A DNA stretch of 64,000 nucleotides, from positions 4,910,084 to 4,974,083 of the forward strand of contig NZ_CP012334.1 in NCBI RefSeq assembly GCF_001704295.1, read 5' to 3'. Source of the DNA: Bordetella sp. H567. Lineage in GTDB: Bacteria > Pseudomonadota > Gammaproteobacteria > Burkholderiales > Burkholderiaceae_B. Of the stretch, positions 20,768-30,200 are shown one piece after another; the first letter of the stretch is position 1, and every line of letters starts with the position of its first letter. Position numbers and translations under genes: made by a program. Below the pieces are notes generated by a model, which made no database searches, was not told where the DNA came from, and saw nothing but the letters and a program-made list of their open reading frames with translations.

Positions 20768-21415
20768 ATGTTGTCTGCCCGTGACGCCCGCGCGACGCGC
20801 CACTATTTTGATAGTGCCTTCAACTATCAGGCAGTCAAAGTGCTGCCCAACGAGTACTACGTCACGGGCGATGACCTGATGATCACCACCGTGCTGGGCT
20901 CCTGTGTGGCGGCGTGCATCCGCGATCCGCAGACCGGCGTGGGTGGCATGAATCACTTCATGCTGCCGGAAGGCGACAGCCAGTCGCCGGCTTCGGCCAC
21001 CATGCGCTATGGCGCCTTCGCGATGGAAGTTCTGATCAACGAGGTCCTGAAGGCGGGCGGCGCGCGCGAGCGGCTGCAGGCCAAGGTATTCGGCGGCGGC
21101 GCGGTGCTGGAAGCGATGCAACAGATGAACATCGGCGAGCGCAACGGCCACTTCGTGCTGAACTACCTGGCGATGGAGAACATCCCCGTGCTGGCCAAGG
21201 ACCTGGGCGACGTGTATGCCCGCCGCATCAGCTTTTTCCCGCGCGACGGCCGTGTGATGGTGCGCAAGATGACCACCAAGGCCCGGGCGACGGAAATCAT
21301 CGCGAAGCGGGAAGTCGCGGTCGTGCAGACGCTGAAGGAAACGACCGCGACCAAGCCCCGCCTGGAGCGCTTCAACATCCCGCCCACCGTGGGCCGCCGC
21401 GCGACCGCCTCTTGA
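20768..21415 (+). CDS. cheD: chemoreceptor glutamine deamidase CheD
   Basis: 215 residues. The CheD catalytic site is visible: Thr41 and Cys46 in [15 protein letters not shown] and His63 in GGMNHFMLP. CheD deamidates glutamines of methyl-accepting chemotaxis receptors and in some bacteria binds CheC. No other chemotaxis or flagellar gene is in the window, so this copy stands apart from any che operon here. No clear ribosome site precedes ATG 20768. It converges on the cluster at 21448-27171. Confidence 0.9.
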
Positions 21416-21447
21416 AGGGACGGCCCGCGTCATTCCGCCGCGCAGGG

Positions 21448-21870
21448 TCAGCTTGATGCGCCCGGCTGCGCCACCGTGCTCCAGTACACCGTAATCGTGG
21501 CATCGTTGAGACCCTGTTCCGGCTGGTAGGTCCCGCCTCCGGAGGGATAGTCCTTCTGGCCGCCGATGTTCACGTACTTGCCGTTGCCCAGCGTCTGGGT
21601 AGGAATCCACCCAAGCTGCATCTGGCCGTTCTGGCTGTCGTACATCTGTACCTGCACACTGCGGGTGTCTCCGCTCTTGGCGCCCTTCACCACGGGATAC
21701 ACGCTGCCCTGGATGCCACCGGGGGGTACTTCGATCTGCTGCGTTTCCTTCCTGTCCAGGACGACCTTGACGGTCCGCTTCCATTTTTCCTCGTTATGGA
21801 CGGAGACATACAAAGGCCTGTTCGCCGGCACGGTGAAATCGCATTCCTTGCCTACGTTACTGTTGCTCAT
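21448..21870 (-). CDS. stand-alone copy of the cluster's shared C-terminal domain
   Basis: 140 residues, no signal peptide, no family I recognise. It is collinear with the C-terminal domain of the two larger proteins upstream: an initial ECDFTVPANRPLYVSVHNEE, basic-hydrophobic RTVKVVLDR, DSQNGQMQLGW near the middle, then KDYPSGGGTYQPEQGLND and a final TITVYW. The alternating pattern suggests an all-beta fold. Start ATG 21870 is preceded by gaggtaagga, a good ribosome site. It has no Ser-Pro linker and so consists of the bare domain. It is last in the minus-strand cluster, 239 nt behind the glycosyltransferase. Confidence 0.75.
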   Translation of the reverse strand: MSNSNVGKECDFTVPANRPLYVSVHNEEKWKRTVKVVLDRKETQQIEVPPGGIQGSVYPVVKGAKSGDTRSVQVQMYDSQNGQMQLGWIPTQTLGNGKYVNIGGQKDYPSGGGTYQPEQGLNDATITVYWSTVAQPGASS

Positions 21871-22109
21871 TTCCTTACCTCTCGGGTGGATGGGATGGCG
21901 GTGCGCCTCGTGATCCGGATGGATACACGCGCATGTCCCGGGACTGCGCCGATGCAATATCGGCGCTGCATCGACGGGATGCCAGACTAACGCCGACCCG
22001 CCAGCCACGGCTGCGCGCCACAGTAATTTCGGCGCACAAAACGTCACCGGGCCGGCGTTGCCTATCCAGGCATGGGGGATGGCCGCCGAGTCTGGCCCAG
22101 GCGGCCGAT

Positions 22110-23201
22110 TCAGGCATGGTCCGTGTGGCACAGGGATGCGCACCAGGCATCGTCGTCCAGCATCGCATCGCCCGCAGGCGGCAGGTGGCCGTCCAGCGTA
22201 GCTTCGTGCGCCATGCGCCGCGCGAAGCACAGGCCCGCGTACCTTTCGTACTGGGCCAGGCTGCGCGCGGTGCCAAGACCGTAGGGTGCGAAATCGACGC
22301 GGTCCGACGGGACGCCGTCCATGCCCAACAGCTGCCGCACGCGCAGCCGCGCGCTGTCGTTCCGCTCGGCCCAGACCAGCGCGACGTCGCCCTTGGCCTT
22401 GGCTTCTTCCGTATGGTCCTGCCAGATGGTCGAACGGCCATCGCACCCATACTGATGCCAGGCAACCAGTCGATGAGGGCAATGGAAATCGTAGCCGTGC
22501 GTATAGGCACGCACGGCGATGGAGATTTCCTCGCCATAGAAGAACAGGCCGGGATCATGCCGCACCTCGCGCGCGAACGCGCCGTCGGCGAAGGCGAAGT
22601 GCGCGCTGTAGAAGGCGACAGGGATGGGGCGCGTATGCTCCGATTCCGCAACATACCTGCCGGAAAGCAGGATGATGCCGTCGTAGTCGAACTTGAAGAA
22701 CGTCAATACCGCGGGCAGCATGACCCGGCTGCCGGGGTCGTCGCGTGAATCGAAAGCCGGCAGGTAAGTGGTCAATACGGGCTTGGGGCTTTCCGTACGC
22801 AGGGATTCCAGCATCTCGATCAATACGGCGTCCCAATGCGGAACGAAGCGATGATGCGAATCCAGCTGCAATGTATAGGCTTCTTCCTGGTAGCGTTGCT
22901 GGATCAGGTTGCGCGCCCAGCAGGCTCCCCGCGATTGCCACTGGGGCACATCGATAAGTTCGATGGCGGCCCCCGCGCGCGCCAGCCGGTGGACGGGATA
23001 TTGGCCGCGCACGTCGCCGCGCGCGCCGGCAAATCCACTGGCGAAGAACGTATCCAGCGTTTCCTCCTGGGCGTGCTGCCAGCACACGACAACGCGCAAG
23101 GCGTCCGGTTGCGCCGCTTGCTCGATCAGGTCCACCAGCGTCGGAATCAGTTGCGGATCGCGATAGCTCGCGATCTGTACGAATATCCGCTTGGCACTCA
23201 T
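22110..23201 (-). CDS. GlcNAc-family glycosyltransferase (Skp1 GnT-like, Pfam GlcNAc family)
   Basis: 363 residues. The opening RIFVQIASYRDPQLIPTLVD, SRGACWARNLIQ (about 90-101), the metal/nucleotide-site LQLDSHHRF (111-119), FYGEEISIAVRAYTHGYDF (about 221-239) and the following CPH...AWH match the family named after Dictyostelium Gnt1. Gnt1 adds GlcNAc to a hydroxyproline of Skp1. Bacterial members are known but mostly uncharacterised. The ATG overlaps the stop of the prolyl hydroxylase (ATGA), so the two are translationally coupled. Inference: it glycosylates hydroxyprolines made by that enzyme. No signal peptide; cytosolic. Confidence 0.85.
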   Translation of the reverse strand: MSAKRIFVQIASYRDPQLIPTLVDLIEQAAQPDALRVVVCWQHAQEETLDTFFASGFAGARGDVRGQYPVHRLARAGAAIELIDVPQWQSRGACWARNLIQQRYQEEAYTLQLDSHHRFVPHWDAVLIEMLESLRTESPKPVLTTYLPAFDSRDDPGSRVMLPAVLTFFKFDYDGIILLSGRYVAESEHTRPIPVAFYSAHFAFADGAFAREVRHDPGLFFYGEEISIAVRAYTHGYDFHCPHRLVAWHQYGCDGRSTIWQDHTEEAKAKGDVALVWAERNDSARLRVRQLLGMDGVPSDRVDFAPYGLGTARSLAQYERYAGLCFARRMAHEATLDGHLPPAGDAMLDDDAWCASLCHTDHA

Positions 23202-23989
23202 GTGAACGTGCCTTGCCTCAGCCATTTGGTGGCCAGCCATTTCTCGCCCGCGATGACCGGCTGGCCGGCATGCAGGGTCTTGCTGTCCCGACGGGGATCT
23301 TCGTAGCTGAAGAACAATGCCTGCCCCCGATGCGCGCCCACGGTGACGCCGATCTCCGGAAAGACGGTGCCACCGCCGCAGGCCGGCTCGTTCAGGTACA
23401 TCAAGACACTGGCCAGACGTTGCCCGCCGCGCTCGAGTATTGCGGGCGTCCCTCGGGCATCCGGCGGGAAGAAATCGAAATGCGGCCGGTATTCCGCCCC
23501 TACGCGGTAATGCAGCACCTGCATTCCTTCCCCGCGCTCCACTGGCCAGTTCACCAGGTTGGCGATGCGCGTCTCGATCCGGCGTACGAGTTCGTTCTCC
23601 CCAGGCTGGAAGAACATCCCGTCGCTGGTCCGCACGTTGTCGAGCACGCTGTCGCCACCGGTCTCGTTATCGACCACGGTGGAATGCCGCAGCTGGGGCC
23701 GCGCCGCGGCGATCAGCGCATCGCACTCTTCGCCGGAAAGGAAATCCGCGAACAGGACGATGCGGGGATCGCGCATGGCGAGCAGCACGCGCACTTCGCG
23801 GTCTCCCGCGTGGATACGCTGGGGGGAATGCGCCAGCGCCGGCTCGGGACAAGCCGGCCACGACAGCGCCCCCGCGTCGACGGCGTAGCCGGCCTCCACG
23901 CGGGCGGCCGCGTCGACACCGGGCGCCAGGGCGGTATCCGCGTCGATCCCCATAGCGTGGTTCTCTCCCTGCATTTCCGTCTCCTTCAT
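23198..23989 (-). CDS. 2-oxoglutarate/Fe(II) dioxygenase of the prolyl 4-hydroxylase family
   Basis: 263 residues. The C-terminal two thirds match prolyl 4-hydroxylase catalytic domains: NVRTSDGMFF (118-127), the HxD pair His170/Asp172 in YRPHFDFF, SVLMYLNEPACGGGTVFPE (about 194-212), His240 in KTLHAGQPV and Lys250 in GEKWLATKWLR for 2-oxoglutarate. The first 65 residues are Ala/Asp-rich and not conserved. ATG 23974 (MQGEN), with aaggag at good spacing, is an equally good start. It overlaps the glycosyltransferase by 4 nt and follows a gene encoding about 59 residues of Ser-Pro repeat, the obvious candidate substrate (inference). Confidence 0.88.
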   Translation of the reverse strand: MKETEMQGENHAMGIDADTALAPGVDAAARVEAGYAVDAGALSWPACPEPALAHSPQRIHAGDREVRVLLAMRDPRIVLFADFLSGEECDALIAAARPQLRHSTVVDNETGGDSVLDNVRTSDGMFFQPGENELVRRIETRIANLVNWPVERGEGMQVLHYRVGAEYRPHFDFFPPDARGTPAILERGGQRLASVLMYLNEPACGGGTVFPEIGVTVGAHRGQALFFSYEDPRRDSKTLHAGQPVIAGEKWLATKWLRQGTFT

Positions 23990-24101
23990 CCGCGCCTCCC
24001 TATCTCCCTGTCACCCGGCCGCAATGCCGATGAGGAACCGCCTCTCCGCCGGCCCCGGCACGGACTCGTGCCGGCGCGTCACGCGCCCCCCGGTTGAAGC
24101 G

Positions 24102-25418
24102 TCAGCCCGCCGAACCCTTGGGTTGCGCCACCGCCCAGGACACCGAGACAGTCACATCGTTGAAGCCCGCTTCCGGCGGATACTGGGTGCCTCCCGTGGC
24201 GTAGTCCTTTTCCGCACCGATATTGACGAATTCGCTTTCACCCACCACCGCCGGCGGGTGCCAGCCCAGCAGCATCTGCCCGGACTTGCTGTCCTGAACC
24301 GAGATGCATATCGTGCTTCGCCCTCCCACTGCTGCGGAGCCTGGGCCCGAAACAAATTCCGTGGCCACTGCGCTGTGGCCCGGCTGGGCTTCGATAGCGT
24401 GAGCGGCCTTATCGATGGAGACGGTGACCGTCCTGGCCCACTTTTCCTGGTTCGTGACCGAAACGGAAAAGTGCGTATTGGCCGGAAGGTTGAAGCAGCA
24501 TTCCCTTCCGGTCCTTAACGAAGGAGAAGGGGCCGGCGACGGCGACGGTGATGGTGATGGCGACGGCGACGGCGACGGCGATGGCGACGGCGACGGCGAT
24601 GGCGACGGCGACGGTGACGACGACGGTGACGGTGACGGTGACGGCGATGGCGATGGCGATGGCGACGGCGATGGCGACGGCGATGGTGACGGCGACGGCG
24701 ATGGCGACGGCGGAGGAGGCGGTGGCGGCGGCACGGGATCCGGTTTGGACATCACTCCGCCGGAAACCGCGTCACCGCTCAATAACGTCGCCGCTTGAAT
24801 GTTCTGCTGGAAGCTCGCCGCCAATTGCAGGAAGGCACTGTTGATCGGGACGGGCCCGCCCACGGCATGGAGCGCCTGGGTGATGTCGTAGGTGATGACA
24901 CTTGCGCCATTGAAAAAGTAGGCAATCTCCTGCCCATACCGTTTCATTGCGGCGTCCATATCCGTGACGAACTGCATCGGCACGCCAGGGAAACTTAGTT
25001 GGGTCGTCGGAACCCAGGCGCTTTGGTTATCGTAGGGCGCCATCAGCACATGTTGGGCACCGGCGAAGAACACGAATGTCCGTTCGCTTCCCGCCAAAAC
25101 AAACGGCGTGATGGCGTTCAACCTTCCAGCCTGCATCCCGCTGGGGTTTACCCAGTCGCCCATGGGACTCGGCCCCTTGGAGACGCGATCCTGGGTCAGG
25201 TCATAGGTGATGTATTGGGTACCTCTGAAAAAATACACATAAGGGCCTGTGCTTTCCGGCGCCCACGCGGCATCGTAATCGCTGGCAAAGCCCACATCCG
25301 CTGTCCCGTGCCAATCATCCGCTATCGAGCGCGGGTAGCCGGGATCCATCGTATTGGTTTGGGCGTCTATCCGTACGTACGACGCGCCCTGGAAAAAATA
25401 GTATTTGGGACCGGACAT
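24102..25418 (-). CDS. hemopexin-like repeat protein with Ser-Pro linker and shared C-terminal domain
   Basis: 438 residues in three parts. Residues 3-212 hold four hemopexin-like blades, each with an aromatic core: KYYFFQGASYVRID, YVYFFRGTQYITYD, TFVFFAGAQHVLM and IAYFFNGASVITYD. Next come a polyproline stretch (PVPPPPPPPP) and about 59 residues of almost pure Ser-Pro. The last 135 residues are the cluster's shared domain (ECCFNLPANTHFSVSVTNQE, DSKSGQMLLGW, IGAEKDYATGG, FNDVTVSVSW). No signal peptide. Hemopexin folds bind haem, proteins or glycans elsewhere; here the ligand is unknown. The linker is the best candidate for the adjacent hydroxylase and glycosyltransferase. Confidence 0.82.
   Translation of the reverse strand: MSGPKYYFFQGASYVRIDAQTNTMDPGYPRSIADDWHGTADVGFASDYDAAWAPESTGPYVYFFRGTQYITYDLTQDRVSKGPSPMGDWVNPSGMQAGRLNAITPFVLAGSERTFVFFAGAQHVLMAPYDNQSAWVPTTQLSFPGVPMQFVTDMDAAMKRYGQEIAYFFNGASVITYDITQALHAVGGPVPINSAFLQLAASFQQNIQAATLLSGDAVSGGVMSKPDPVPPPPPPPPSPSPSPSPSPSPSPSPSPSPSPSPSPSPSSSPSPSPSPSPSPSPSPSPSPSPSPSPSPAPSPSLRTGRECCFNLPANTHFSVSVTNQEKWARTVTVSIDKAAHAIEAQPGHSAVATEFVSGPGSAAVGGRSTICISVQDSKSGQMLLGWHPPAVVGESEFVNIGAEKDYATGGTQYPPEAGFNDVTVSVSWAVAQPKGSAG
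24535..24711. repeat. hexanucleotide GGCGAY array encoding the Ser-Pro linker
   Basis: About 29 near-identical hexamers (ggcgac or ggcgat on the plus strand, with a few ggtgac/ggtgat) and one tgacgacgac interruption near 24614-24624. On the coding (minus) strand each hexamer gives one Ser-Pro pair. Loss or gain of whole hexamers keeps the frame, so the linker can vary in length by slippage. Confidence 0.9.
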
Positions 25419-25510
25419 GGAAATTTCCTATATAGACAGACAAGACCATCCATGACCGGTACCTAACGGAAGCCAGGCTTGGATGACGTAATGGTGCGTC
25501 GTTTACCCGC

Positions 25511-27171
25511 TCAAACCGCCGACCCCTGCGGCTTGCTTGCCGCCCAGGACACGGTGACTTCAACGTCGTTGAAGCGGGTCTCCGGCTGGTAATTGCTGCC
25601 CGAGGGATAGTCTTTCTCTGCACCGATGTGGACGTACTCGCTGTCACCCACGAGTGTCGTCGGACGCCAGCCCAACAACATCTGGCCGTGCTGGCTGTCT
25701 TGCACCTCGATGCAGATCAAGCTCTTTCCCTTCTGGGCAATCTTGAACTCCTTTACCGCGGGGCAATTTCCAAAACCGGAATCGCCGTCGAGTTGATTGA
25801 GATCGACCCGAGAAAGACGCCTTTCTCGGGTTCCACTGCTTACGTGGGACGGGACTGGCGAAGCGGCTTCAATCCAGTCGCCATCATTCTGCACACGCCG
25901 CTGTGCGCGAACCGCGGGGCCACCATAATCTTTTGTTTCGGCGCGTTTACACGCCGAGCCTCGAGCGGGGCACCCGCGGGAACGAACGACATGCGCGAAC
26001 TGCCGGGAATCAGGTCGCACGGGCGGCCGCCAGCCCAACAACATCTCGCCCGACTGGCTGTCCTCGATCTCGATGCATACCTGGCTCTTGCCGCCCTGGG
26101 CGGCGGTTCCTGGGCCGGAGACGAAGTTCTTGGAGCCTGTGCTATGGCCGACCGGCACCGGAATGCTGGTGGGCTTCTGGTCGATATACACCATCACCGT
26201 CCTGGTCCACTTTTCCTCGTTGGTGTATGCAACGGTGAAGTTCGTGTGGGCGGGGATATCGAAGCAGCACTTCTTCCCGGTGGTCAGCGCGGGGGAAGGA
26301 GACGGCGAATGCGACGGCGATGGGGAGGGAGAATGGGATGGCGAGGGGGAATGCGAAGGCGACGGCGAAGGGGAAGCCGACGCCGGCTTGATGTTGGTGA
26401 CCCTCCACCAGGGGTCGCCACCTGCACCGATATTCAACGCCTGCCGCGTGAACACCATGTACATCTCCTTGGCGCCGTCGAGCGGCGCGGAAATTTGCCC
26501 ATGGATGCACAAGAACTCCCCTGTCGCATTGCCGTTGTTAAGGTAAGGCGGCGCCGCGAGGCAACTGGAAAGGCAAATATAAGAGTCTCCGGGATGGGAG
26601 CCACGCCGTACGGATTCGGATTCCCAGGGTTGGCCGGGTCCTCCACGCCAAAGATGTGCCATGTCCAGCTGTCTACATCGTCCGACGGCTTGCCTCCGTA
26701 GGCCTTGGCGTTGGACTCCCTCACGGCTTGAAGGGGTTGCCCCGCCGTGGACTTGGGCGTGACGTTCACGAGTTTGACGACGTCCCCCACCATCACACTG
26801 CCCTTTTTCTTGCCATCCTGAGACTCGAATTTCCAAGTCGCCACCGGACTATCCGTCGTCACCGCGTATTTCGACGTATCGAGGGCGAGGTAGCCGCCGA
26901 CGGCCGGGAGCTCGATACTTCCCTCATAGCCCAGGCCCTGCAGTTCGAATGTATCGCCGTATTGAAGATCGCTTATCTTTGACTCCCGATTCAGCCATGC
27001 AAAATTCCGAAACTCGGACTTGCCCGGACAAGTGGATTTGATTTCGGGTATCCGGCGGAAATGGATTTCCCGGATTCCAGTGCTTCCATGCACACGAGAG
27101 GAAGCCGCTGCTTCCCTCCTGTCGTGGCCATTGTGCGCACGGCGCCATGCCGGGAGCGAGAGCGCGACCAT
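25511..27171 (-). pseudogene. frameshifted, mosaic member of the Ser-Pro/shared-domain family
   Basis: Reading 5' to 3' on the minus strand: from about 27171 to 26590 one frame gives a beta-rich region (DLQYGDTFELQGLGYEGSIE, GGYLALDTSKYAV, WTWHIFGVEDPANP). The sense then continues in another frame from 26587 (DSYICLSSCLAAPPYLNNG), so one base is missing or two are extra near 26590. A Ser-Pro/His linker lies at 26291-26386 and the shared domain starts at 26278 (KKCCFDIPAHTNFTVAYTNE) but stops matching after MLLGWRPP (about 26024). About 260 nt of unrelated sequence with a perfect hairpin follow, then the second half of another copy of the domain (25756-25511). ATG 27171 lacks a ribosome site and is only a candidate. 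A sequencing error at 26590 cannot be excluded. Confidence 0.6.
25807..25830. other. perfect 10-bp hairpin inside the mosaic gene
   Basis: cccgagaaag and ctttctcggg flank an acgc loop. It lies in the stretch of the mosaic gene that matches no family member, and looks like intergenic sequence trapped between two partial genes. Confidence 0.6.
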
Positions 27172-27237
27172 AATCTTTTGTGTCGGCTGATTTACGACAT
27201 CGGCGGGATGCCCGGGGCGCGCCATTCCGGGCCGCGC

Positions 27238-27265
27238 AAAAAAAAACGACGCGCATGGCGCGTCG
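27238..27265 (-). terminator. intrinsic terminator of the indolepyruvate oxidoreductase gene
   Basis: On the minus strand an 8-bp stem cgacgcgc/gcgcgtcg with a 3-nt loop is followed by nine T (A-run at 27238-27246 on the plus strand), 25 nt past the oxidoreductase stop. It separates that gene from the minus-strand cluster at 21448-27171, which therefore needs its own promoter. Confidence 0.9.
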
Positions 27266-27290
27266 CTCGAACAAGGAATTACAGGTAGCG

Positions 27291-30200
27291 CTATGCGGCG
27301 CGGGCGGTGCCTCCCGCACTTCCATGCGTGCCGCCATCCAGGCGCTGCAACAGCTCGGACCGGCGCGCCCGCGCCCTGTCGATCGCGGCGTCCTTGATGT
27401 GGCCGTAGCCGCGGATCTCTTCGGGCAAAGTTGCCAGCGCCACGGCAATATCCAGATTGCCGCGTCCCAAGCGAGGCAATAGCGCCGCGATGGTGTCGCG
27501 GTACTCCGCCACCAGCGCCCTTTCCGTGCGCCGCTCCTTGGTGTACCCGAAAGGATCGAGCGGCGTGCCACGCAGGAAGCGCGCCTTGCTGAGGACGCCG
27601 AAGGCTTTCATCATCCATGGCCCATAAGAACGCTTGACCAGATGGCCCTGGGCATCGTGCCGCGAAAAAGCCGGCGGCGCCAGATGGAAATTGAGCTTCC
27701 AGTCGCCTTCGAATTGTTCGGCGATGCGGCGCAGGAAAACGCCATCGCTGTACAGCCGGGCCACCTCGTATTCGTCCTTGTAGGCCATCAGCTTGAAGTA
27801 GTTGCGCGCGACCGCCTGGGCCAGGCGCGTGGTGCCCGTCGCGGCGAATTCGGCGGTGGCGACCTGCTCCACGAAATCGGCATAGCGCCGCGCGTAGGCC
27901 TTGTTCTGGTAGTCGGCCAGGAAGCGCTCGCGCCGGCCCACCAGCGCGGCCAGATCCGCGGGCCAGCGCCGCGCCGGGCCGGCATCTCCGGCCGCCAGCA
28001 CCGCGCCGCGGCGGATTTCGATGATTTCCGCGCCGGTGTTCACGGCATCGCCCGCATCGGACGCGGCCGGCGCGATCAGTTGCTGGACAGACGCCAGATC
28101 CTGCGCGGCGCGGCGGCCCCAGGCGAAGGCGGCCTTGTTGTTCTCGACCTGCTGGCCGTTCAGTTCGATGGCACGCAACAGCGACTCGCGCCCCAGGGGA
28201 ATCCAGCCTTTCTGATAGGCGTAGCCCATCATCAAGGGGTTGGCGTAGATGGCGTCTCCCAGCAAGCCCACGGCCAGTTCGGCGGCATCGACCGTATCCA
28301 CCTGCCCCGGCATGCAGGCCCCATCGATGTCGCGCTGCAGGCTGTCCGATGGCAGGCGCCAGTCCGGATTGGAAATAAAGGCAGCGGTAGGCGCCACATC
28401 GCTATTGAGCAGCAGGCGCGTGCGTTCGGGCCGCATGCGCGCCAGCGCATCGCGGCTGCTGGCCACCACCAGGTCGCCCGCCAGGACCAGGTCGGCCTCG
28501 CCCATGGCCACGCGGGTGTTCAGCAAATGGCCCGGCGAGCGTGCCAGGATGACGTGCGAATGCACGGCTCCGCCCTTCTGCGCCAGGCCCGCCATATCCA
28601 GCACCGAGCAGCCCTTGCCTTCCAAGTGCGCGGCCATGCCCAGCAGCTGGCCGATCGTGACCACGCCGGTGCCGCCCACGCCCGCGATGAACACGCCGTA
28701 CGGCCTATCCAATGCGGGCCGTTCGGGATCGGACAATGCCGCGTCGATCTCGCCCTGGGCGGCGATGCCCTTGGGCTTGCGCAGCTTGCCGCCTTCCACC
28801 GTCACGAAGCTGGGACAGAAGCCGTTCAGGCAGGAGAAGTCCTTGTTGCAGCTGGACTGGTTGATCGTGCGCTTGCGGCCGAACTCGGTTTCCAGCGGCT
28901 CGACCGACAGGCAGTTGGATTTATCGGAGCAATCGCCGCAGCCTTCGCACACGCGGTCGTTGATGACGACGCGCCGGGCGGGATCCGGATACGCGTTGTG
29001 CTTGCGCCGCCGGCGTTTTTCCGTGGCGCAGGTCTGGTCATAGATCAGGATGGACACGCCCGGATACTCGCGCAGTTCGCGCTGCACGCGATCCAGTTCG
29101 TCGCGATGCAGGACCGGCACGCCGGGCGCCATGCCGTTCATGGTTTTGTATTTCTCGGGCTCGTCCGTGACCACGACGATTTTCTCGATGCCCTCGGCCG
29201 CCAGCTGGCACGTGATCATGGGCACGCTGATGGGCCCGTCCACCGGCTGGCCGCCGGTCATCGCGACGGCATCGTTGAACAGGATCTTGTAGGTGATGGG
29301 CGTCTTGGCGGCAACCGCGGCGCGGATGGCAAGCAGCCCGGAATGATAGTAGGTGCCGTCGCCCAGGTTGGCGAAGACATGTTTTTCGTCCGTGAACGGT
29401 GCATGGCCGACCCAGGGCACGCCCTCGCCGCCCATGTGGGTGTACAGATCCGTGCTGCGGTCCATCCACCGGACCATGTAGTGGCAACCGATCCCGGCCA
29501 TGCCGCGCGAGCCCTCCGGCACGCGCGTGGAGGTATTGTGCGGACAGCCCGAGCAGAACCAGGGCTTGCGTTCCGCCACCACGCGCGGACGCGACAGCGC
29601 GCGCTCGCGCGCGTCGATGAAGGCCAGGCGCGCCTCGATGCCGGCGCGGACGTCGGCCGGCAGGTCGAACTTCAGCAGCCGCGCGCCGATGGCCTTGGCG
29701 ACGATGGCGGGCGAAAACTCGTAGTGGGCGGGCAGCAGCCAATTGCCCTGCGGCACGGCCCATTCGCCGCCGTCCTTGTCGTCGAACTTGCCCACCACGC
29801 GCGGGATTTTCTTGCCGCTGCCTATCCAGCTGAACAGCTCTTCCTTCAGCTGGTATTCCAGCACCTGGCGCTTTTCCTCGACCACCAGGATTTCGTCCAG
29901 GCCTTCGGCGAAGCGCTGCATGCCCGTGGCCTCCAGCGGCCACACCATGCCCACCTTGAACAGCCGCACGCCGATACGACGGCAGGTGTCGTCGTCCAGG
30001 CCCAGGTCGGACAGCGCCTGGCGCGTATCCAGGTATGCCTTGCCGGACGTCATGATGCCGAAGCGCGCGGCTTCCTGCGGCACATGCCAGAGCTCGCGGT
30101 TCAGCCCATTGGCCCGCGCATAGGCCAGCGCCGCGTACAGCTTGAAGTCCAGCAGGCGTGCTTCCTGTTCAAGCGGCGTATCGGGCAGCCGGATGTTCAA

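What the first reader, a model, noticed from the sequence alone, without database searches (positions are those of the whole stretch)
21448..27171. Candidate bacterial hydroxyproline O-GlcNAc system with its own Ser-Pro substrates
Seen: a prolyl 4-hydroxylase-family enzyme (23198-23989, His170/Asp172/His240/Lys250 in place) overlaps by ATGA a glycosyltransferase of the Skp1-GnT (GlcNAc) family (22110-23201). They sit between genes for proteins with Ser-Pro linkers of about 59 and 30 residues. Known: in Dictyostelium a prolyl 4-hydroxylase and Gnt1, founder of this transferase family, act in succession on one Skp1 proline; plants hydroxylate and glycosylate Ser-Pro repeats of arabinogalactan proteins. 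Inference: the two enzymes hydroxylate and then glycosylate the Ser-Pro linkers encoded beside them. I know of no described bacterial system of this kind.
Basis: partly seen in the sequence, partly recalled or inferred. Interest (0 to 1): 0.92.

Follow-up and report, generated by a model that had tools for sequence, protein, structure and literature searches.

The report
Bacterial proline-rich protein sugar-tagging gene cassette
A small block of bacterial genes pairs a likely proline-hydroxylating enzyme with a likely sugar-adding enzyme beside genes for proteins with long serine-proline stretches, and similar pairings, some fused into one protein, recur in distant bacteria, so bacteria may decorate proline-rich proteins much as plants and amoebae do.

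Summary
P4H (23198-23989) and a GT60-family transferase (22110-23201) overlap by ATGA. Both Ser-Pro genes lie upstream, the 30-residue one is broken, and the downstream gene carries the shared C-terminal domain (a LecB-type lectin fold) without a linker. The 5.9 kb block is an insertion, absent from three same-genus genomes.

Of 67 GT60 loci, 18 hold a P4H: 11 in the same polypeptide, five of these with a hydroxyproline-arabinosyltransferase domain as well. Burkholderia dolosa has the same cassette, including a PA-IIL lectin with a Ser/Thr-Pro linker. In T6SS clusters carrying close GT60 relatives, 14 of 15 VgrGs have Ser/Thr-Pro-rich tails, against 0 of 28 (other subtypes) in GT60-negative genomes. 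The transferase model most resembles polypeptide GalNAc-transferases.

Against a strict hydroxyproline route: 6 of 20 GT60-T6SS genomes give no P4H match, 10 of 18 P4H loci show no convincing Ser/Thr-Pro protein, and no chemistry is shown. Most likely: hydroxylation, then sugar addition, on neighbouring Ser-Pro linkers; serine as the acceptor stays open.

The parts
21448..21870 (-). 140-aa stand-alone copy of the PA-IIL-like C-terminal domain, no linker
   Evidence: (ATG at 21870), alignment (40% identity to the 24102-25418 domain)
22110..23201 (-). GT60-type glycosyltransferase (PF11397); D114-S-H116 motif; model closest to polypeptide GalNAc-transferases
23198..23989 (-). prolyl 4-hydroxylase family 2OG-Fe(II) oxygenase; H170, D172, H240, K250
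24102..25418 (-). hemopexin repeats + Ser-Pro linker + PA-IIL-like lectin domain; candidate substrate
24534..24710 (-). 59-residue Ser/Pro linker; its 17 departures from TCG/CCG are all at third codon positions
25511..27171 (-). broken second Ser-Pro lectin gene: N-domain, Ser-Pro/His linker (26291-26380) with PA-IIL-like domain, and a second domain piece lie in different frames or are interrupted
21397..27334 (.). inserted block: the flanks lie about 166 bp apart in the closest same-genus genome examined

Best explanation
The block is a modification cassette for proline-rich linkers, acting in the cytosol. P4H hydroxylates prolines in the Ser-Pro linkers of the lectin-like proteins encoded beside it (24102-25418, before its decay 25511-27171, and probably the (SP)50 protein elsewhere in the genome). 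The translationally coupled GT60 transferase then adds an alpha-linked HexNAc, probably GlcNAc, to the hydroxyprolines. The product would be a protein whose hemopexin and lectin ends are held apart by a stiff, glycosylated, protease-resistant rod. Shown: the genes, their overlap, the folds, the recurrent P4H-GT60 linkage and the recurrent Ser/Thr-Pro neighbours. Inferred: enzyme activity, location, sugar, acceptor residue, order of steps and role.
For: P4H and GT60 overlap by ATGA and lie in one inserted block. P4H domain in 18 of 67 GT60 loci (11 in the same ORF, 7 as separate genes), 0 of 20 random own-genome regions; two P4Hs per 5.53 Mb would predict about 0.7%. Five gammaproteobacterial proteins fuse PF23452 hydroxyproline O-arabinosyltransferase + PF11397 + PF13640; 3 of 3 alphaproteobacterial 2006-2452 aa proteins scanned carry several PF11397 stretches plus PF13640. 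B. dolosa L086 has a PA-IIL lectin with [ST]P linker + P4H + GT60 and no match to the T6SS markers; its GT is the nearest row to the window GT by tree path, on an unresolved fork. Each of the 5 HPAT-GT60-P4H loci has a small Ser/Thr-Pro-rich ORF beside the fusion gene or one gene away. Tyr167 of the P4H aligns with the Cr-P4H tyrosine that contacts proline in the (Ser-Pro)5 complex 3GZE (alignment; Tyr140 and the complex in PMC9676403, passages seen). Gnt1, a GT60 member, needs hydroxylated Skp1 proline (PMC6939170, passages seen). PA-IIL-type proteins in two genomes without a GT60 match lack [ST]P runs: G285 (two proteins) and G098 (one, Gly-rich linker).
Against: The window GT sits in a 26-row clade with the 22 T6SS-linked GT60 rows of the tree, whose loci have no P4H match (21 of 21 loci); 6 of 20 such genomes give no P4H match and one only a weak one. 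Ten of the 18 P4H-GT60 loci show no convincing Ser/Thr-Pro protein, among them all 5 multi-GT60 loci (L108, L109, L112-L114). No HPAT match in the window genome. The (SP)50 protein at L075 has no P4H or GT match in the 17 kb held. One of the window's Ser-Pro genes is broken. No biochemical evidence.
Confidence: 0.5

Rival explanations
1. Same substrates, different chemistry: GT60 puts HexNAc directly on serine (or threonine) of Ser/Thr-Pro stretches, mucin-style; P4H hydroxylates prolines of the same linkers independently or to set their shape.
Against: P4H-GT60 fusions and the added HPAT domain point to hydroxyproline; the ATGA overlap suggests one pathway.
Confidence: 0.3
2. P4H and GT60 act on another protein (for example a housekeeping factor, as a Pseudomonas prolyl hydroxylase acts on EF-Tu) and the Ser-Pro neighbours are coincidental linkers.
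For: EF-Tu is the described target of the Pseudomonas enzyme PPHD (PMC4543633, passages seen). P4H relatives fetched from other genomes of the family lie beside other genes and, apart from G542, with no GT60 match in the DNA shown. Ten of 18 P4H-GT60 loci show no convincing Ser/Thr-Pro protein.
Against: The cassette is an insertion carrying enzymes and Ser-Pro proteins together; the same trio recurs in B. dolosa; 0 of 30 control loci (547 kb) have an [ST]P ORF by the strict rule against 20 of 67 GT60 loci, three of the 20 looking like chance.
Confidence: 0.1
3. The transferase works on a glycan or lipid rather than on a protein.
For: Foldseek also lists polysaccharide and wall-polymer transferases such as GlfT2 and TarS; one distant GT60/P4H pair (L057) lies in what I read, from ORF starts, as a polysaccharide-export locus.
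Confidence: 0.04
4. The block is decaying and no longer works.
For: The 25511-27171 gene is broken; the block is absent from three same-genus genomes.
Against: P4H, GT and the 24102-25418 gene are open throughout, with conserved residues kept and only synonymous variation inside the chosen Ser/Pro run.
Confidence: 0.06

Closest known systems
Skp1 prolyl hydroxylation / GlcNAc pathway (PhyA and Gnt1, GT60) of Dictyostelium and Toxoplasma
   Same: Prolyl hydroxylase plus GT60 transferase; Gnt1 depends on hydroxyproline (PMC6939170, passages)
   Different: Bacterial; candidate substrates are repetitive Ser-Pro linkers, not one Skp1 proline; genes adjacent; Skp1 and the later pathway enzymes were not looked for
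Plant/algal hydroxyproline-rich glycoproteins (P4H, HPAT/GT95)
   Same: Ser-Pro rich targets; algal P4H binds (Ser-Pro)5 (PMC9676403, passages); HPAT domain present in related bacterial fusions
   Different: No HPAT match in the window genome; no ER/Golgi; GT60 instead of arabinosyl or galactosyl transferases
Polypeptide GalNAc-transferases (GT27, mucin type)
   Same: Nearest solved folds of the GT model; DxH-type motif (that ppGalNAc-Ts have it is recalled)
   Different: 11-14% identity in ranks 1-29; separate Pfam family; no second domain over its cut-off in the window GT
LecB/PA-IIL and Burkholderia Bcl lectins
   Same: C-terminal domain fold; same Pfam family above cut-off in L075 and B. 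dolosa
   Different: Window domain of 24102-25418 scores below the cut-off; joined by a Ser-Pro linker to hemopexin repeats

Membership tests
GT60 / Skp1-GnT family (PF11397) | profile score over the curated cut-off | tested here: met
   262.6 bits against 21; profile positions 2-351 of 352
GT60 / Skp1-GnT family (PF11397) | conserved metal-site motif | tested here: met
   D114 and H116 invariant in 24 sequences; that this is the metal site is recalled
GT60 / Skp1-GnT family (PF11397) | UDP-GlcNAc : hydroxyproline-polypeptide activity | not testable with these tools
   no enzymology
Prolyl 4-hydroxylase (collagen/algal type) | HxD...H iron triad and 2OG-binding Lys | tested here: met
   H170, D172, H240, K250 invariant in 9 sequences; solved P4Hs at E down to 3.7e-42
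Prolyl 4-hydroxylase (collagen/algal type) | 4-hydroxylation of peptidyl proline | not testable with these tools
   no enzymology
Skp1 modification pathway | Skp1 substrate and later transferases (PgtA, AgtA) | not tested
   not searched for
Plant hydroxyproline-rich glycoprotein system | hydroxyproline O-arabinosyltransferase | tested here: not met
   PF23452: no match at E <= 0.001 in the window genome
LecB/PA-IIL lectin | LecB fold | tested here: met
   model pLDDT 80.7; the 25 Foldseek hits at E <= 0.001 are PA-IIL, CV-IIL, RS-IIL, BC2L/BclA lectins and thrombocorticin, best 5.7e-7
LecB/PA-IIL lectin | curated family score | tested here: inconclusive
   17.4 bits for 24102-25418, 23.3 for the broken gene's piece, 23.9 for L075, cut-off 21
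LecB/PA-IIL lectin | two-calcium sugar site | not tested
   C-terminal loop is low confidence in the model (residues 115-117 under 50)

The most novel reading that the evidence does not exclude
Bacteria of several phyla run dedicated cassettes that make hydroxyproline-rich or mucin-like glycoproteins: GT60 alone or with P4H and HPAT, each next to its own Ser/Thr-Pro-rich client (lectin linkers, Tat-type exported tails, repeat tails of adhesin-like proteins, VgrG tails of a T6SS subtype). The eukaryotic Skp1 and plant HRGP pathways would then be branches of an older bacterial toolkit, and a T6SS spike would be a glycoprotein.
Probability: 0.45. Interest if true: 0.95.

Novelty: new variant of a known kind. 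Interest (0 to 1): 0.86.

Why it matters
In the passages I saw, prolyl hydroxylation followed by glycosylation is described for eukaryotes, and the one bacterial prolyl hydroxylase target named is EF-Tu. Cassettes that carry enzymes and candidate clients together give directly testable substrates, would give a role to part of the bacterial P4H and PF11397 proteins, and could supply simple enzymes for glycosylating Ser-Pro peptides in bacteria. The T6SS branch, if real, would add glycosylation to VgrG biology.

Tried and rejected
Rejected: that a P4H neighbour is a constant companion of GT60 (0 of 21 T6SS-type loci; 18 of 67 loci in all); that the downstream gene is a Ser-Pro protein. A first genome-contig scan with the single GT sequence found nothing; the alignment query found 65 loci. 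A PDB sequence search with the GT found nothing up to E 10. Composition differs mildly (block 62.6% GC, rest of the window 66.5%). The promoter scan found none; terminator-like sites 6 against 4.7 expected. The looser Ser/Thr-Pro rule gave 17 of 45 non-T6SS GT60 loci against 6 of 30 controls, with chance reading frames in both. VgrG controls are other VgrG subtypes (28-38% identity; 37-46%, where 1 of 23 passed the tail threshold), so GT60 and T6SS subtype are not separated; every VgrG of 59% or more in the capped list lies in a genome with a GT60 (7 genomes; G885 checked). One such VgrG (L239) was missed by the script; its Pro-rich end was seen. Random-region controls come from the window genome only (20 regions), plus ten P4H loci. 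One search failed in the script and was redone. Papers: searches in CC-licensed PMC text showed, in titles and abstract starts, none on bacterial P4H-GT60 pairs or VgrG glycosylation; longer lists were cut (15 of 92 papers shown, 12 of 21, 8 of 33), and subscription papers and preprints are not held. No call names the organism; the same-order genome G074 holds the locus also found as Neisseriaceae bacterium TC5R-5.
Full report
What is there. The genes of the block are on the minus strand. In transcription order: a broken gene (25511-27171) with an N-terminal domain, a 30-residue Ser-Pro/His linker and PA-IIL-like domain pieces in different frames; an intact gene (24102-25418) with hemopexin repeats (PF00045, 49.1 bits), a 59-residue Ser/Pro linker and a PA-IIL-like domain; P4H (23198-23989); GT (22110-23201), overlapping P4H by ATGA; and a small stand-alone PA-IIL-like protein (21448-21870).

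The linker looks selected as protein. In 59 codons all 17 departures from TCG/CCG are third-position changes; at equal chance per position that is 8e-9, but the stretch was chosen as an unbroken Ser/Pro run, so the figure overstates the case. The (SP)50 linker of L075, chosen the same way, mixes three Pro codons. In B. dolosa the 51-residue linker uses two Ser, four Thr and three Pro codons, so it is not a plain DNA repeat.

An insertion. In G098, G495 and G496, same genus, the cheD and oxidoreductase genes are neighbours. Against G098, homology stops at about window 21396 and resumes at about 27335, with about 166 bp between in G098. Three of the five other same-genus genomes found were examined this way. 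I infer that the block came as a unit.

Relatives of the transferase. PF11397 matches 12 of 399 order-level genomes, own included (10 over cut-off); the window GT matches 16 of 268 family genomes, own included. A scan of named genomes gave 65 loci (L139 and L140 hold only fragments); with the two best family relatives (L038, L039) I examined 67. P4H domains by my own profile occur in 18 of 67: in the same ORF as GT60 in 11 (L108, L109, L112, L113, L114, L117, L122, L125, L128, L131, L135) and as separate genes in 7 (L086, L101, L115, L119, L127, L130, L136; L101 and L130 several kb away). I gave 9 of the 11 to Pfam, and all 9 show both PF11397 and PF13640 (L109 and L114 not scanned). Five of them are HPAT + GT60 + P4H: four pass the HPAT cut-off, and the fifth (L122, cut by the end of the stretch held) passes in the whole-genome search, where one more genome (G676, L103) has a separate HPAT gene; 6 of 13 genomes searched match. 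No P4H domain was found in 20 random window-genome regions. The 0.7% expectation and the 2e-23 tail probability use the window genome's two P4Hs and ignore relatedness among loci; five or so distinct arrangements is a fairer count.

The same cassette in Burkholderia dolosa. L086 holds a PA-IIL lectin (64.0 bits) with a Ser/Thr-Pro linker, a second PA-IIL protein (50.0 bits), a hybrid sensor kinase, P4H and, 39 bp on, GT60. P4H matches the window's at 45.7% and GT at 55.3%; none of the T6SS markers matches there. It is the only P4H found in that genome, and its GT is the nearest row to the window GT by path in the tree, though the fork joining them is unresolved.

Ser/Thr-Pro clients. By the strict rule (7 or more [ST]P in 40 residues) 20 of 67 GT60 loci have such an ORF: L086, 9 of 21 T6SS-type loci and 10 of 45 others, against 0 of 30 control loci (547 kb); three of the 20 (L110, L118, L138) look like chance. 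By the looser rule the numbers are 17 of 45 non-T6SS loci against 6 of 30 controls. The ones I find convincing outside T6SS and L086 lie within about 2.2 kb of a GT60 or fusion gene: L096, L103, L117, L122, L125, L127, L128, L129, L131, L135. Several begin with a twin-arginine-like stretch and an A-x-A-like site before the Ser/Thr-Pro tail (the Tat reading is mine). Of the 18 P4H loci, 8 have a convincing one (L086, L117, L122, L125, L127, L128, L131, L135) and 10 do not; L130 has a small Pro-rich ORF that passes neither rule.

T6SS branch. All 21 other loci among L076-L095, L038 and L039 carry TssA, TssF, TssG and GT60 matches, none a P4H match; an SCPU-like gene matches in 20, and in the 21st (L094) with another query (the names TssA/F/G, SCPU, Rhs and VgrG are my recalled readings). 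Fourteen of 15 VgrGs found in their DNA have Ser/Thr-Pro-rich tails, the 15th just misses; 0 of 28 in genomes of one genus without a GT60 match. In Burkholderiaceae, 6 of 6 VgrGs of the GT60 subtype against 1 of 23 others pass; four of the six repeat loci. Of 20 of these genomes searched for P4H, 13 give a strong match (in B. dolosa the L086 gene), one a weak one and 6 none. This is the main evidence that this transferase clade can work without hydroxyproline.

Reading. The simplest account is an enzyme pair made for proline-rich segments. The fusions with HPAT and P4H argue for hydroxyproline as an acceptor in this family; the T6SS branch and the ppGalNAc-T-like fold argue for Ser/Thr. In the window and B. 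dolosa, where P4H is coupled, I favour hydroxylation then glycosylation of the linkers at 0.5, with direct serine glycosylation at 0.3. That the enzymes act on the linkers at all I put near 0.8.

Known work. Gnt1 of GT60 and its need for hydroxylated Skp1 (PMC6939170, passages), HPAT as GT95 (PMC8012813, passages) and the Pseudomonas EF-Tu hydroxylase (PMC4543633, passages) are the nearest described systems I saw. Seven searches of the held papers showed no title or abstract start on a bacterial P4H-GT60 system. The one GT60 passage shown of PMC3797821 deals with algae and Dictyostelium.

Noticed in passing
window 25919-25950 and 27164-27195: A 32-nt repeat, 84% identical, shared by the start region of the broken gene and the stretch that interrupts its domain; a duplication followed by loss would explain it.
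   Followed up: partly
L038, L039 and L076-L095 except L086: T6SS clusters with TssA, an SCPU-like protein and a GT60, and VgrGs with long Ser/Thr-Pro tails.
   Followed up: yes
L108, L109, L112, L113, L114: Very long proteins with 3-4 GT60 domains and P4H; three scanned by Pfam also match AhpC-TSA, over its cut-off in one (L112).
   Followed up: partly
L103 10042-10521; L125 7415-7744; L131 5745-6065: Small proteins with a twin-arginine-like start and Ser/Thr-Pro-rich tails near GT60 genes.
   Followed up: partly
L103 genome (G676), C206:283-1104: A separate HPAT-family gene in a bacterium that also has GT60 and a Ser/Thr-Pro tail protein, with no P4H match.
   Followed up: no
L057 5893-9904: A distant GT60 and a P4H about 2 kb apart in what looks like a polysaccharide-export locus.
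   Followed up: no
L231 5256-5882: PA-IIL-like protein in sibling genome G098 with a Gly-rich linker and no Ser-Pro run.
   Followed up: partly
G000:C1:1109284-1110021 (L060): A second P4H in the window genome, 48% identical, away from the block.
   Followed up: partly
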